A stretch of DNA of 64,000 bases from Icerya purchasi. Its lineage: Eukaryota > Arthropoda > Insecta > Hemiptera > Monophlebidae. Shown piece after piece: positions 10,807 to 18,251 of this stretch. Every line of letters begins with the position of its first letter. Position 1 is the first letter of the stretch. The notes below the pieces were generated by a model. That model was not told the DNA's origin and made no database searches. It saw only the letters and a program-made list of their open reading frames with translations. Made by a program: the position numbers and the translations under genes. Location: the NCBI GenBank assembly GCA_039619475.1, contig CM077115.1:310200734-310264733 (forward strand), in the 5' to 3' direction.

Positions 10807-12390
10807 ATAGCAATGAATGCGATCACTTCATATAATCAAAACCATAGATAATAAAAAGTACATATCATCAAATAAACTAAGTTGTTACGAAGAGAAAAAA
10901 AAATATATTAGAACCAAATTCAATTCATTTATGTTACATTTTATAAATGACGAAGAGCTAATAACTTTTTAAATATGGCTGACTACATATTAAAGCAAAA
11001 AAAAAAAAAAAACATTGGATAAAAATTTGACCGATTACTATACACCGTACTGGTAACAGAACTTTTAAATGTACGTCGCAGAAGTCTGTTTATATTTCAC
11101 ACCGAAGTCGTTATTTTAAAGGAATATGAGCGATGATATAGAACAGGTCTCCATTTTATTTACAACAGCGGATTATCGTCATCTGTCTCTGTTCGTTTAC
11201 ATCAACTCTGCATTCATGCTCGCCTTTTAGCATTTGTGTTCCCCCTTAATTATTATTAGATGTATTAAACTTCCAATCATCATCTTTCTCAAATAACGTC
11301 CTTAGTAGTTCCGTATAAAACAAAAAAGAAAAAAAAGTCCTTCGCATAATGCATCTGATAAGTTTATTTGAATTTGTAATAATCATATTTCGAATTACTT
11401 AAGCTCCGGGCCGCTGTTTTATTTTGATTTTCGTTTTTATAAAGACAGAAAGAAACAAAAAACAATAATAAGACAAACTATATTTTTGTTAACCCATGCT
11501 TTATACTTTTTTTTTGTCAGTAAAAGTACATTGATAAAAAAATAGTTAAGAACAAATTTTAAAAACGAATAATGAAACATAATTTCCTTCTCATTCAGTA
11601 TATATAATTTATTTATTTAAAGTCGCTCGGCAACCAACCGGTATAATGTACAGGCTAGAAAAAATATTTTTTTCCAAAATTTGTAGCTTTTGACGCCCCG
11701 AGGGCCTAATTTTGTAGTTGGAAACCCGAATGCTTCAAATTAAAGATATCGGAGAATACGCGTATTTATAGCCTAGTTCAAAATTGTTAACTATAATACT
11801 AGCGCCGTAAAGAGAGTACGTCATTTTTGGCGCTATTTTGAACTTCTCGCCAACTTCGAAATTTTCGCCGTTAAGAAAATAAAGTACGGTTTCATTCCGA
11901 TATCTTTTTCCATCGATATATATTACACGCCCGAGAAAAAAAAATATTTTGTACAAATTTGGATCTTTCGAAGCCCTGAATCTAAATATGAATGGCCAAT
12001 TTTCAATTTTTTCTCCCCTGTAAAGCGCTCTTTTATGCTTTTATGCGCACATGTTTGAGGTATATTTCGATTTTTAAACTTTTTCACACAGACTATGGTT
12101 ACGTACGCAAAGATTCTTTTAGCATGGAATATGCTTTAGCCGTGACCTAACTGGCAGAAAACATCACACTAGAATGGAACGGAGAAAATGTCACACTAAT
12201 ATGAAACGCGAGGACGTTACGCGGGAGCTAAATAAGAATACAGCCTTTTCTTCTAGTTGTCTTAAGTCAGTCCTGTAAAATATAAAATTGTTGTTGTCGA
12301 ATGAATGAAAGAAATGTGATTACGTAGAAGGGATTGAATAATAGTAGCGTTTTGATGAAATGCACGGCAACTAAAGAAAACGAAAACTTT
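9100..12390. other. No supported gene; AT-rich sequence with a long TA repeat
   Basis: No domain or conserved frame was seen. Many poly-A and poly-T tracts occur, and a long (TA)n lies at 10735-10807. The Helitron begins somewhere before 12393, but I could not define its 5' end. Confidence 0.55.
10735..10807. repeat. (TA)n microsatellite
   Basis: About 70 bases of nearly pure TA dinucleotide, with one TACA interruption near its right end. Confidence 0.95.
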
Positions 12391-12514
12391 CGATGAACGA
12401 AATGGAGGCATTGAAATTACGCAAATCTATGGAAATGAAAGAAAGCGTGGAAATTGCGCAAATCTCTCGAAAAAAGCAATTAGCAACGAAAACGATGAGC
12501 CAAAGCAGCCTAAA

Positions 12515-13124
12515 AGTGTTGCCGAACGAAAGAAAGAAAGCCGTCAACGTCAAAAAGTAGAAAAATTAGCTCTAAAAAGATCTATGGATACAGATGAAAA
12601 TGGCGATGTACCTAAAAAATTATTGAAAACTAATTACCCCCTGGCTGACCAGGAATTTGATATTCGTTTTCGACAAAACCCACTAGGCCAAATTTGCGAT
12701 CGAATTCGGTTTGAAAGAGATTTAAGTTAAATTGATCCCACGTGTTACGATATATTACGAGCTCTGAATTCCCAAAAATGAAGATATTACGAATTTCAAG
12801 ATGTGCGGCACTTGTAAACAATCGATTTACCATTCAAGAAAAATCCCTCATTTATCACGAAGTAACGGTTTTGTTTACCCAGAAATTCCAGCAGATTTAC
12901 CGACACTCGATCGCATTACTGAATCGAGACTTCCGTTTATGCAAATCAGGCGTCTCAGATACGAACACGGCAATCACAGCATTATTGGCCAAGTTGTGAA
13001 TGTGCCTGACGATGTAAATAACACGGTTTCACAACTACCTCGGCACCTGGACTACGATTATTATTGTTTCAACGTTCACATCGAGCGCTTGTTGATCCGT
13101 GACACGAAGGTGCCATTGAAATAA
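12515..13124 (+). pseudogene. Helitron-encoded protein, N-terminal part (zinc-binding/DUF6570-like region)
   Basis: A basic N-terminal stretch (KESRQRQKVEKLALKRS) precedes FRQNPLGQICDR and RFERDL, typical of Helitron proteins. A stop at 12728-12730 and another at about 12779 break this frame. The frame that opens at ATG 12801 then carries CGTCKQS, KIPHLSRSNGFVYPEIP, RLPFMQIRRLR and IIGQVVNVPDDVNNTVSQLP. These blocks match the region found in insect Helitron helicase-like proteins upstream of the Rep domain. It ends at 13124, just before the long-inverted-repeat insertion. The product would normally act in rolling-circle transposition, but this copy is inactive because of the stops, a frameshift and two insertions. 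Confidence 0.85.
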
Positions 13125-13147
13125 TAACTAAACAACAGGATTACGTA

Positions 13148-13663
13148 GTCCGGTCAAAATAGACAAAAAAATAGTGGTAAATTTACATTAATTCACATAG
13201 AGCTGAGAATTGCTACACCGGTCTTAGGCAGACTATTAAAAATAAAATATCAAACATCCCCATCGATTCCATGTCTGTTAAAAAAATTATTTAAAGTCAA
13301 AGGTCAAAAATATTAGTTTTTTGCATTTTTCTGCTAAACGATAAGTGTTATCATAAAAATGGATCAGATAAAAATGGTAGATTATGCAATTATCTACAAA
13401 ATTTGTTCTTATACTTTTTTTTCGTACGAATCACCATTTCTGAGATATCGCGATTCTAAAATTTGAAAAAGTCGTATTCTATATAATATGCATATATTTC
13501 CGCACTACCTGTGAGATAGTGTACTTGGCGCATTTCCCCGGTAGGCAAATTCCACGATCTATTGTGATTCAGTTTTATCGAATAATATTCTATTAATTAA
13601 AAAATGATACTATTGTAAACGATTAAAGTGGCGCCCGAGTTATTGTTGATTTGGAGAAAAATT
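13148..13663. repeat. Left terminal inverted repeat of the long-inverted-repeat element
   Basis: Reverse-complement partner of 14877-15372. Shared landmarks include GGTAGGCAAATTCCAC, GTGTACTTGGCGCATTTCC and TTGTAAACGATTAAAG. Confidence 0.9.
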
Positions 13664-13834
13664 TAGTCTGACTGAGAATGTTCAAATGCAACTTCAATGG
13701 TAATGTCTCCTTCATTTTCTTCTGCTTCTTCTTCTTTTTCTTCTTTTTCTTGCTGTATATGTCTGTAAATTATTCTAATAAGGATGATTTAGTTGTCTCC
13801 TCGTTGGTATAAAAAATCCTCATCTGTTACATTT

Positions 13835-14830
13835 GATTCAACATTTGAGCCAGACTGGCCTCGACAATTACTGGTGAACAAAATAATCCGATTTTTTTAC
13901 AGGCACAGTTTGCACTACAACCCTTTTTGCAATTGCAAAAGATGGTGTTAAGAAGTTTTTACGGAGCAGGTGGGAGTAAAGTTTGGTTTAGCTCCAAAGT
14001 ATTATCTATTAGTTTCCAACTCCAGTTTTCTGGGTCCAGTTCATTGCCTAGCCCCACTTGAACTTGACAGTATATACTCGATGATATAAGTGTTGATAAG
14101 CAAATGCAGATGCAGATGTGTCGGATGAAGACAAGATAGAGTTGTACTCTTTTATTGTTCCGTGTATTTTTTACAAAACTTAAATATCTGTGTACTTGTC
14201 TATACAATTCATTTTTTTTGGAGCTCCATGTATAGCGAGGAGAAACCAAATTCGGTTTGTGATGATGTCTTGTGGAGAAAAGTCAATATTTTCAAAAACA
14301 ATAAAATCCTATTTTTCAAACAATTTGAATACTGTTGTTTTACTCCTTTTGAATAATGTAGTACCGCGGCCAGTTATTGCATGTAACAATAAGATATGAT
14401 TTTGACATTTTGGAGATAAACAGATAAACTTATTGATGAATATATTTTTGTTTGTTGTTGACCCTTGCCAGGTTTCAAAAAGTAAATAATCTTATCAATA
14501 GAAGTTTGCGCAGTCAGTAGTATTAATAAATCAATATCTTCTCCAAAAACGATAGTTGTATTTGTTGTATTGTTCTATTACTGTTTCAATTATGAGGACA
14601 TCTGCATCATTATCAGCTTGTTTCACTAAAATGTTCGCAGTTGTAAATTTTTCACATAGAAATGAAGCGGGACTTGCTGTATGTACTTGCAAGAAATCAT
14701 TGTTGGTTTGTTGGAACTGTGTCATAAATGATCAAAAACGACATCAGAAGATGAAAAGGTTTTTGTAGTTCGACGACGTTGTTCTGCAGCTTTAATACTT
14801 TTTTTTTATAATCAGTATAATCATTAAATA
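13835..14830 (-). pseudogene. XPG/FEN1-like nuclease with C-terminal CXC motif (broken)
   Basis: Several minus-strand frames give one ordered protein. An FNDYTDYK block, where FDGY would be expected, is followed by KAAEQRRR and SSDVVFDHL. Next come ILVKQADNDADVLIIET and IVFGEDIDLLILLTA, the paired acidic motifs of XPG/FEN1-type PIN nucleases. LKPGKG and LLLHAITGRGTTLFKRSK follow. A WSWKLIDNTLEL block is then followed by a cysteine cluster, CNCKKGCSANCACKKIGLFC, which resembles CXC (tesmin/TSO1-type) DNA-binding motifs. At least three frameshifts and several stops interrupt it. This architecture recurs in many insect uncharacterised proteins that I believe are transposon-derived. The nuclease role is inferred from motif spacing only. 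Confidence 0.75.
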
Positions 14831-14876
14831 GTTTCTCTATGATCAAAATGTTTACGTACATATTGAACGTATTTAT

Positions 14877-15372
14877 CATTTTCTTCAAATCAACAATAAC
14901 TAAGGCACCACTCTTTAATCGTTTACAATTTTTTAATTAATAGAATAACTATTTGATAGAACTGAATCACAATAGATAGTGGAATTTGCCTACCGGGGAA
15001 ATGCGCCAAGTACACTACCTCACAGGTGGCGCTGAAATGTGTGCATATTATATAGAGTACGACTTTTTCAAATTTTAGAATCACGTTATCTCAGATATGG
15101 TGATTCGTACGAAAAAAAGTATAAGAACAAATTTTGTAGATAATCGCATAATCTACTATTTTTATCTGATCCATTTTTATGATAACACTTACCGTTTACC
15201 AGAAAAATGGAAAAAAAAATATTTTTGACCTTTTACCCTGAATAATTTTTTTAGCACATATGGAATCGGTGGGGACTTTTGATATTTCATTTGTAATAGT
15301 GTACTAAGGATCTGTATCAATTTTCAGCTCTATGCGAATTAATGTAAATTGAAATGTCTATTTTGACCGGAC
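14877..15372. repeat. Right terminal inverted repeat of the long-inverted-repeat element
   Basis: Reverse complement of the left repeat; the outer end is CCGGAC at 15367-15372, followed by TA. Confidence 0.9.
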
Positions 15373-15403
15373 TATATGATAGTGGATCATACTTCTTGCT
15401 CAG

Positions 15404-15554
15404 CAACAAACGTTAATGTGGAGCAAAGATAGATATTGCAACTGGAGAAAATAAAATACCAAAATCAGTATCATTTTCGATGAGCATGCTGAAGAGTTGT
15501 CGTTTCCTGGAATCTACTTTGGTCACCCACGATCTTTTGAAGATGGGGTGGAAG
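15404..15554 (+). pseudogene. Helitron-encoded protein, middle part
   Basis: Across two frames this piece reads LLAQQQTLMWSKDRYC, then GENKIPKS, then DEHAEELSFPGIYFGHPRSF, a block highly typical of Helitron helicase-like proteins. It runs directly into the hAT target site: the final GGTGGAAG at 15547-15554 is the first copy of the 8-bp duplication. A frameshift lies near 15460. Confidence 0.88.
15547..15554. repeat. hAT target-site duplication, left copy
   Basis: GGTGGAAG here is repeated exactly at 20175-20182, immediately outside the hAT inverted repeats. Confidence 0.97.
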
Positions 15555-15704: not shown

Positions 15705-18234
15705 TCATAGCAAAATCTTTTTTACAATTATCAATATCAATGTCAGAATAGCTAAATTTGATAGCCTCAACGTGGACATAGTCGATCTGAGATAATTTTT
15801 GATTAACTTTAGTTTAGAGAAGCTTCTCTCGCAACTGGCATTACTGATGGCAGATGTTAAAAAAATTCTCAGCATTATGACAATGTTTGGTAAGCCATCT
15901 TCAAGTTTGGACTCGATAATATATTTTAATAAACCTAGAGAGCCGGACTTAATGGGCTCTTTTTTACAATCTGGGTCTGTTGTAGCTACGAAAGCTCGTA
16001 AACGTATGCGCTCAAGTTGAAATTGTTCTTTATTAATGTCTGGAAGAGCTTGATGTAAGTTAAGTTCGTCCACGCTCAATATCACTACAGGTCTTAAAAA
16101 ATCATATTTTTGCGCTAGATTCTGCAGCTGTTGAAGTCTTTCTCGAATTTCAGCAATTACTCCGTCTATTGAAGAAAACATTGTTCGCCTCAAGTCATCT
16201 TTGAACGATATCTCAACACCTTTACTTCCGTCGCCAAATATATGCTTCCTCCTGATTCGTCTTGAGGGTTCAAAAGAAATTTCAAGCTTTTCACATAAAC
16301 TTTTGGTAATATCTTAAAGCGTCATCCACGTATTCCTCTCGCTTTTCTTCCAATGCAGTCTGTAAAGCACTTATTTTCTGAGCACATTGATGCATATTTA
16401 GTCCCTCTGTTTGAAAATTATTTTGAGCATCATTTACTTCACACAGTACCGGTTGCCAGAAGCCTAAGTAACATAAAAACGAATATGATTGCATAGCGAC
16501 TAATAAGCTTCCTGCATCTGTCCGTGTGTTCAAGCTTTTTTTCATTTCCATCAGTTTTTCCAGTGCAGTTAAAGTTTCTTTGTAATGATGTCTAATGGAA
16601 TTTACAGAATCACCTCTAGCGCTCCAACGTGTGTCCTGAACCCTCTTCAAACTTTTTCTTGTGGCTGAAAGAAGAACTTCCCACCGATGTGTCGACGTAG
16701 AAAAAAAAAGCGTAGCAGCGTTCTTAGCGTACCAAAGAAAGTCATCGAATTTACCTCCTCTGAAGCTGCATGTAGGCAAACTAGGTTTAGTGAATGGTTT
16801 GAGCAAGGAACAAATTCGGCATTGGGATTGATATCCTTTATCCGCTGTTGCACACCTGTGTGGCATCCAGCCATCGTGGTAGCATTATTGTAAGCTTGCC
16901 CTCTACAGTTCATGATGTCGAGCCCATCAGCCTTAAGTTTGCTTACTATCGTGTCACTTATACCTTCTGCAGTTTTGGTTTTCGTTTCGATGAAATCTAT
17001 AAAAGATTCCTCTACTCTAACCTTCTGGTTTTCAATTATCACATATCGTAATACTTGGCTTGTTTGATCTTTGTGGGAAATATCCGGGGTTCTGTCAAAG
17101 ATCACGGAATAATATTTAGCCTTTTGGACACGAGCTATAATTATTTGGCGAACTTTTTTTCCGAAAATTTCTATGAACTCATTTTGAATTTGAGGTGACA
17201 TATAAGTGAGAGAAATGTTTTGGCCTATTTTTATCCTTACTAAATGCTCTCTGAGGATCGTACTTTGCTAGAAGATGCACCAATTCTAAAAAGTTTCCTC
17301 TGTTAGTACTTATGTCATCTTCCCTGTAGCCACGTAACACCAAATTTTGTTTTGCCAGAAATTGTATAATATCAAACATTCTTATCAGAATTTCATGCCA
17401 TTTTTTGATTTCCTTTGCCAATATTTCTTGTTTCTTTTTATCAATTGTTTGCTCTTTTCGAAGTCTCTTTTCCAACTCCTTCCATTTGCAAAATTTTCCG
17501 TTATGTTGAGCACTTAATTCATGATTAGCCACCTTGGGATTTAATTTCCACCAAGTATTAAATCCGTCGGTGGAGTAAAATTTCGACGCATTTGATGGAT
17601 TGGCATTTTCAAATAAACGACAACAGAAGCAAAACAATGAAGCTTTCGAAGGAGAATATGCCATCCAAGAGCGTAAAACTTTTTCGCCGTTTGGCAATAT
17701 CCAGTAAAACCAATCTCTAGTCAACCGTCTCGTCGATAATACTTTTGATGTTGTAGAGTCCATGTCTGACTGAACCGTGGGTGATACTGTTGGCTCTTCA
17801 GAGAACTCTGTATTCATGTGTTGAACAATTTCAGGACCACCTCTCTGTATCAATAGCAACCTTATGTTTGAATCTATACTTTCAGGCCATTTCCAAATGT
17901 CGCTGAAATCAATATTTTGTTTGGGTGTCGGAATTTCAGCAATCACAGCAGAACTATTTGAATCTGACAAATTCGTACTATCAATCAAAGGTTGCAAGTC
18001 GTCAGTATCGGCTATTTGTTCTATTTGAGCTACTTCTTGGATTCGAACAACACTAATCTCTGAAGAACTCACACTTGAAGGTCCTGCCGTAGACTCTAGC
18101 GAAGCTGGCGTAGATTCTGGCGTCTCCGAAAGTTTCACAAACTTCAATATAGCTCCTTCATTCTTCTTGATATTCTCCTCCTTTTCTTTCTTCTTATTCC
18201 GATAATATGCTCCACTTTCTTTTGTCCTTTTCAT
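15705..18234 (-). pseudogene. hAT-family transposase, zinc finger MYM-type protein 1-like
   Basis: The protein begins at 18234 with an acidic, serine-rich linker. A TTF-type zinc finger region follows (SWMAYSPSKASLFCFCCRLF, then HELSAQHN). The catalytic core starts in the next frame: SVIFDRTPDISHKDQTSQVL holds the first catalytic Asp. NCRGQAYNNATTMAGCH follows, where the usual second Asp (YDNA) is Asn. THRWEVLLSA and TRWSARGD come next. The C-terminal hAT dimerisation block, NASCERSFSKLKLIKNYLRS, carries the catalytic Glu. Three frameshifts separate four frames: near 17200-17230, in a T9 tract at 16701-16709 (A-run on plus), and near 16300-16315. About 800 codons in all, normal for the family. 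It is dead from both the frameshifts and the Asp-to-Asn change. Confidence 0.95.
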
Positions 18235-18251
18235 ATTTAGTTAGAGATGTG

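What the first reader, a model, noticed from the sequence alone, without database searches (positions are those of the whole stretch)
13148..15372. Long-inverted-repeat element carrying an XPG/FEN1-like nuclease and CXC motif
About 500-bp terminal inverted repeats bracket a single minus-strand pseudogene. It combines paired acidic PIN/XPG motifs (NDADVLI, GEDIDLLILL), a GRGTT block and a CxC cysteine cluster, with no DDE transposase visible. Repeats make up almost half of its length. The nuclease-plus-CXC protein is common in insect genomes as an uncharacterised gene. Seeing it between inverted repeats, as a clean insertion in a Helitron, links it to mobility. It may be an AcademX relative or an undescribed group.
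Basis: partly seen in the sequence, partly recalled or inferred. Interest (0 to 1): 0.85.

Follow-up and report, generated by a model that had tools for sequence, protein, structure and literature searches.

The report
Truncated nuclease-carrying cut-and-paste transposon family
This is one worn copy of a repeated jumping-DNA family whose only gene is the cut-off tail (a DNA-trimming nuclease plus a zinc-binding end) of a larger transposase-like protein, so it is most likely a passenger version of a known kind of transposon rather than a new kind.

Summary
A 2229-bp element (13146-15374) has ~500-bp inverted arms around one decayed minus-strand gene. It is one copy of a uniform family: 16 near-complete copies, the window included, lie 4.6-6.3% from a 2264-bp consensus. 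Exact 3-bp target duplications flank 16 of 26 copies with both tips (shuffles: mean 2.3, maximum 9); the window copy shows none. The consensus has an open 406-codon frame without a start codon, encoding most of a FEN1/EXO1-type nuclease plus a CXC cluster. In relatives this is the C-terminal third of a ~1480-aa protein with an N-terminal Cys/His region and a conserved acidic core (probable transposase); all seven FEN-type acids are invariant in 40 of 40. The window family lacks the first; two sibling copies (L039, L059) keep more of the gene. So it is a non-autonomous deletion derivative, not a nuclease-only transposon. Duplication length and nuclease fit AcademX as printed; Academ-specific transposase motifs could not be tested. 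No autonomous copy was found: that genome search did not complete.

The parts
13146..15374 (.). whole element, 2229 bp, copy of a ~2.26-kb non-autonomous family; 5.4% substitutions from the consensus
13146..13660 (+). terminal inverted repeat, low-coordinate arm (downstream of the gene); tip 5'-TAGTCCGGTCAAAATAGACA
14879..15374 (-). terminal inverted repeat, high-coordinate arm (upstream of the gene)
13666..14877 (-). decayed gene remnant: C-terminal part of a transposase-like protein (nuclease from just before the VFDG position, tail, CXC, acidic C-terminus); several stops and frameshifts
   Evidence: own-genome protein hit C1:310214399-310215610
14591..14608 (-). DADVLI, two of the seven FEN-type acidic positions
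   Evidence: invariant D1207/D1209 in 40 of 40 relatives
14524..14544 (-). GEDIDLL, two more FEN-type acidic positions
   Evidence: invariant D1231/D1233
14357..14371 (-). GRGTT, decayed from GCDTT (seventh acidic position D1292 lost in this copy)
13850..13946 (-). CXC-type cysteine cluster (CNCKKGCSANCACKK...); limits approximate
   Evidence: nine C-terminal Cys conserved in the full-length family
12768..13124 (+). setting of the insertion: frame with DUF6570, a Helitron-associated domain (association recalled)
   Evidence: E 2.5e-8
15479..15550 (+). probable continuation of the Helitron frame (DEHAEELSFPGIYFGHPRSFEDGV); assignment of this piece is recalled, not matched by a tool

Best explanation
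The element is a dead copy of a non-autonomous DNA-transposon family made by internal deletion of an XPG/FEN-nuclease-bearing transposon, most likely of the AcademX kind. Shown: copies share ends and interior, carry 3-bp target duplications, and hold only the last ~406 codons of a gene whose full-length relatives (~1480 aa) add an N-terminal Cys/His region and a conserved acidic core. Shown: the family consensus lacks a start codon and the first catalytic Asp (the DGG motif of relatives), and its left arm is longer than in sibling copies L039 and L059. Inferred: the founder arose when the left end was replaced by an inverted copy of ~200 bp of the right end, for instance in faulty gap repair; a full transposase supplied in trans then spread it in one burst. 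Inferred: in the intact protein the acidic core is the DDE-type transposase that cuts the ends and joins them with a 3-bp stagger, and the FEN/EXO1-like domain trims 5' flaps or overhangs left by cutting or by target repair, a job that host FEN1 would otherwise do.
Against: No autonomous copy was found; the own-genome search with the N-terminal part did not complete. Fold matches of the long model cover only the nuclease, and its first N-terminal strands are low confidence, so the transposase fold is unproven. The window copy has no target duplication, and 10 of 26 copies lack an exact 3-bp one at the tip as scored. Distinct changes shared by three or more copies have N/S 0.70 of expectation (72 S, 152 N), and one copy (L029/L017, C2:15625910) keeps residues 14-406 without a stop, which leaves room for weak selection or several coding founders. 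L039 and L059 are single copies, so the direction of arm change (extension versus loss) is not certain.
Confidence: 0.82

Rival explanations
1. The 2.26-kb element is itself autonomous: the FEN-like nuclease is the transposase, and no DDE enzyme is involved.
For: The 2.26-kb type is the common type among the fetched copies (they were picked by the arm and by the nuclease, so this is biased); its consensus frame is open for 406 codons; distinct changes shared by several copies are short of non-synonymous ones (0.70-0.88 of expectation); one copy keeps 392 codons open.
Against: No start codon, an in-frame stop just upstream, and the first catalytic Asp missing in the consensus; single-copy changes are neutral (1.10); relatives and L039/L059 carry upstream parts that it lacks.
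Confidence: 0.05
2. The nuclease gene is captured cargo: a host FEN-like gene picked up by an unrelated TIR transposon.
For: The fold is that of host FEN1/EXO1. The interiors of the fetched copies were not scanned for other transposases.
Against: The nuclease is joined to the same N-terminal part in relatives from corals (Montipora, Porites), molluscs (Mytilus, Mya), a sea cucumber, a sponge, fish, a sea spider (Nymphon) and, for the end of that part only, a moth; the same fusion is present between the tips of L059. In the copies whose interior was aligned, the interior is this gene.
Confidence: 0.04
3. A transposon of this protein family but outside Academ: a separate superfamily with 3-bp duplications, whose acidic core belongs elsewhere (the weak DUF6589 match is its only named relative).
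For: DUF6589 matches 4 of 14 long proteins scanned (P0215, P0238, P0298, P0258; E 3.5e-6 to 1.6e-3, all under the curated cut-off), and the database's precomputed column lists PF20231 for P0209, P0215, P0238 and P0323; no Academ reference sequence was at hand.
Against: 3- or 4-bp duplications plus a nuclease are what is printed for AcademX (PMC10045372, passage seen); 3-bp TSD is printed for Academ in insects (PMC5199201, passage); curated bivalve Academ elements average 5565 bp (PMC10294476, passage), about what a 1480-aa gene plus arms needs, and bivalve relatives are in the hit lists.
Confidence: 0.12
4. The arms are a segmental inversion, not transposon ends.
For: None beyond the pair in the window itself and its missing duplication.
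Against: Same ends at 26 fetched loci, exact 3-bp duplications at 16.
Confidence: 0.01

Closest known systems
AcademX lineage of the Academ superfamily (Kapitonov and Jurka 2010; Kojima 2020, both seen only as citations)
   Same: 3- or 4-bp target duplications and an encoded nuclease (PMC10045372 passage); size of the full-length gene fits Academ elements (PMC10294476 passage)
   Different: The window family keeps only the nuclease and CXC end, has ~500-bp arms and no start codon; Academ-specific transposase motifs not compared
FEN1 / EXO1 / XPG (Rad2) structure-specific nucleases
   Same: Fold and, in full-length relatives, seven acidic positions (matching of the seven to FEN1's own residues is recalled beyond the stretch aligned)
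   Different: About 12% identity; fused to a CXC end and, upstream, to an acidic transposase-like core; transposon-borne
Database proteins named 'Tesmin/TSO1-like CXC domain-containing' in insects, spiders, molluscs and others
   Same: Several hits bear this name: P0006, P0009, P0036, P0066, P0116, P0220
   Different: That these entries are mostly partial transposon copies is inferred from their similarity and broken lengths, not tested one by one
Academ MITEs of insects (iMITEdb, PMC5199201, passages seen)
   Same: 3-bp duplications; short copies of about 0.8-1.2 kb with the same tips exist here (L015, L016, L019)
   Different: The usual size among fetched copies is 2.2-2.3 kb and they retain part of the gene

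Membership tests
AcademX (Academ superfamily) | 3- or 4-bp target-site duplications | tested here: met
   Exact 3-bp in 16 of 26 (shuffles mean 2.3, maximum 9); also ata/ata in L016 when its damaged tip is read by eye, and 4-bp atca/atca in L058. Definition from a passage of PMC10045372
AcademX (Academ superfamily) | element encodes a nuclease (that it is XPG-type is recalled) | tested here: met
   FEN/EXO1/XPG fold and residues in relatives; in the window family truncated and decayed
AcademX (Academ superfamily) | DDE transposase with Academ-type motifs | tested here: inconclusive
   Invariant acids and a candidate core in full-length relatives and a remnant in L059; fold not recovered; no Academ reference sequence available; PMC7165386 and PMC3093488 not held
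AcademX (Academ superfamily) | terminal inverted repeats | tested here: met
AcademX (Academ superfamily) | tips align with a Repbase Academ family over positions 1-11 (Repbase rule for non-autonomous elements, PMC4455052 passage) | not testable with these tools
   Repbase not at hand
AcademH | helicase and 9- or 10-bp duplications | tested here: not met
   Duplications are 3 bp, none of 5 or more; six long relatives show no helicase in Pfam at E 0.01
FEN1/XPG/EXO1 nuclease superfamily | fold plus conserved acidic active-site residues | tested here: met
   For the family. The window copy lacks the first, second and seventh acidic positions
Tc1/mariner | TA duplication | tested here: not met
   TA is the first two bases of the tip; exact 3-bp duplications lie outside it

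The most novel reading that the evidence does not exclude
The protein defines a transposase type in which a FEN/EXO1-like flap nuclease is fused to the transposase and does the non-transferred-strand or target-flap trimming itself, and these elements spread across insects and spiders by horizontal transfer. In this version the retained nuclease fragment would still be made from some copies and act on transposition, as helper or repressor, which would explain why the 2.2-kb type that keeps it is the common one among the copies fetched.
Probability: 0.1. Interest if true: 0.6.

Novelty: new member of a known kind. Interest (0 to 1): 0.32.

Why it matters
It gives a likely identity to a protein that sits in insect, spider, mollusc and coral gene sets as 'uncharacterised' or 'Tesmin/TSO1-like CXC': pieces of a nuclease-bearing transposase-like protein rather than host genes. 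It is also a clean case of how such an element turns into a non-autonomous family with lengthened inverted repeats, and it supplies copies for asking what a FEN-like nuclease does in cut-and-paste transposition.

Tried and rejected
Pfam on the window's pieces and on the 406-aa consensus frame gave nothing significant, so the identity rests on profile and fold comparison. Two scans of IMG/VR viral contigs confirmed no relative (44 pattern matches; 72 pattern matches; none encodes a relative). Foldseek and VIA on the 1148-aa model of P0143 matched only the nuclease at useful scores; the N-terminal core is thus not placed, and its absence from those lists is no evidence against a transposase fold. 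Rfam (gathering threshold) and tRNA scans of the window were empty. Considered and rejected: TA duplication and Tc1/mariner; segmental inversion; captured cargo; AcademH. The idea that the open consensus frame shows selection was tested and is not supported for changes seen in one copy (N/S 1.10 of expectation), but distinct changes shared by two or more, three or more, four or more and six or more copies give 0.81, 0.70, 0.86 and 0.88. L030, a 21%-diverged relative, was left in that count.

Of the 58 loci held at the time (several overlap), only L030 and L039 matched the upstream parts of six long relatives.

Literature: (XPG with Academ) listed one irrelevant paper; searches list papers that name Academ; (DUF6589) listed one irrelevant paper; (flap endonuclease with transposase) listed two papers not on a fused nuclease, judged by title and abstract start only. 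Papers were seen only as search listings and term passages (passages of PMC10045372, PMC10799480, PMC10294476, PMC9783078, PMC9587614, PMC12730594, PMC5199201, PMC9004415, PMC4455052).

Full report
What is there. The window holds a 2229-bp element at 13146-15374. Its terminal 20 bases are perfectly complementary and its arms pair over about 500 bases. A single decayed gene lies between them on the minus strand. The window lies in an unnamed 1.10-Gb genome of 41 contigs, two of them 602 and 497 Mb.

It is a family. The left arm gives 42 scored matches in the genome out of 291 first-look candidates, of which 40 were scored. I fetched 20 regions; 17 hold at least part of the same interior, while L015, L016 and L026 do not. 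Of 42 loci examined for both tips, 26 had them and 16 did not. An exact 3-bp duplication flanks 16 of these 26, against a shuffled mean of 2.3 and a maximum of 9 in 2000 shuffles; exact matches of 5 or more bases do not occur. Ten lack an exact 3-bp match as scored: the window copy (acg/tat), L016, L021, L039, L043, L044, L046, L054, L055 and L058. Of these, L016 shows ata/ata once its damaged tip is read by eye, and L058 shows a 4-bp atca/atca.

The family is even in age. Aligned over more than 2270 columns, 16 copies, the window included, lie 4.6-6.3% (substitutions) from the consensus, and the consensus arms are 97.3% identical over 525 columns. This looks like one founder with nearly identical arms and a single burst (inference). 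The more distant L030, inside L059, lies 21% away.

It is only the tail of a larger protein. Searching with a longer relative gave 699 proteins (7992 candidates scored) and, with the N-terminal part alone, 668 (7977 scored, best 120 listed), many of them 1400-1530 aa, the named long ones from Porites corals and Mytilus. Forty were aligned. Seven acids of the nuclease (D1098, D1137, D1207, D1209, D1231, D1233, D1292) are invariant in 40 of 40, as are D447, D450, D571, D603, E797, D869 and E873 in the N-terminal core. The N-terminus carries conserved Cys/His pairs and the C-terminus nine conserved Cys, counted in rows that reach those ends. The core's only named match is DUF6589, below its cut-off in 4 of 14 long proteins scanned (E 3.5e-6 to 1.6e-3), though the database's precomputed column lists it for four proteins. 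Reading the core as a DDE-type transposase is my inference; the fold searches did not place it.

The same gene is longer in two sibling copies in this genome, the only two of 58 loci then held (some overlapping) to match upstream parts. L059 (3.25 kb, TAA/TAA flanks by eye, own arms about 270-330 bp) contains the end of the N-terminal core, the region between, and the nuclease and CXC, with stops. L039 (2485 bp, 6.3% from the consensus) keeps FIIDGGYLLHRVVWDREE, the region of the first conserved nuclease Asp, in front of the nuclease; its left arm matches the consensus only to base 321. So the 2.26-kb type lacks the 5' part of the gene and has a left arm about 200 bp longer, and the extra piece is an inverted copy of the right side. 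With one copy of each sibling the direction of change is likely but not certain.

Does the fragment matter to the element? Across 39 loci, changes from the consensus give N/S 0.90 of the neutral expectation overall (609 S, 1655 N), 1.10 for changes seen once (186 S, 620 N), and 0.70 for distinct changes seen in three or more copies (72 S, 152 N). One copy keeps residues 14-406 free of stops. Recent decay looks neutral. The deficit in older changes is mild and may reflect several founders or weak constraint.

How it most likely works. A complete protein made elsewhere binds the tips, cuts and inserts with a 3-bp stagger; the nuclease domain probably trims 5' flaps. The 2.26-kb copies were moved in trans. 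Steps shown: ends, duplications, copy family, truncation, nuclease identity. Steps inferred: transposase core, trans mobilisation, flap trimming, inverted-copy origin of the long arm.

Relation to known systems. PMC10045372 (passages) states that AcademX generates 3- or 4-bp and AcademH 9- or 10-bp duplications, and links this to the nuclease and helicase they encode. The former matches here. PMC5199201 (passages) gives 3 bp for Academ in insects; PMC10294476 (passages) gives a mean of 5565 bp for curated bivalve Academ elements. That AcademX's nuclease is XPG-type is recalled. I therefore place the family as a probable non-autonomous AcademX member; the defining features not established are the Academ transposase signature and the match of the tips to a Repbase family. 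Novelty is low: a new member of a known kind, with a useful explanation of a common 'uncharacterised' protein.

Noticed in passing
window 15705-18240, minus strand: A decayed hAT-type transposon (hAT dimerisation domain E 9.5e-10; DUF4371 E 9.3e-11, and 1.5e-5 below cut-off) lies directly downstream of the Helitron piece, with the only stop-to-stop frame of 220 aa or more in the window (353 aa).
   Followed up: partly
window 12359-13124 and 15479-15550, plus strand: Helitron-type frame (DUF6570 on the left) split by the element; the frames are broken, so the Helitron is probably dead too.
   Followed up: partly
L039 bases 1050-1420 (approximately): About 370 bp of DNA of unknown origin, GC-richer by eye, sits between the left arm and the start of the gene remnant; possibly filler DNA from repair or captured sequence.
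   Followed up: no
L015, L016, L019: Short copies of about 0.8-1.2 kb with the same ends and little or no gene, that is, MITE-like derivatives of the same family (in L015 only one tip passed the scan).
   Followed up: partly
proteins P0215, P0238, P0258, P0298: Weak, sub-cut-off matches of the transposase-like core to Pfam DUF6589; that unknown family may be a related transposase core.
   Followed up: no
P0100 and P0012: Gene models in which a piece of this nuclease is joined to a Tc1/mariner-type (SETMAR, Eumeta) or integrase (PF00665, Polistes) domain; more likely annotation fusions of neighbouring transposons than real proteins (not tested).
   Followed up: no
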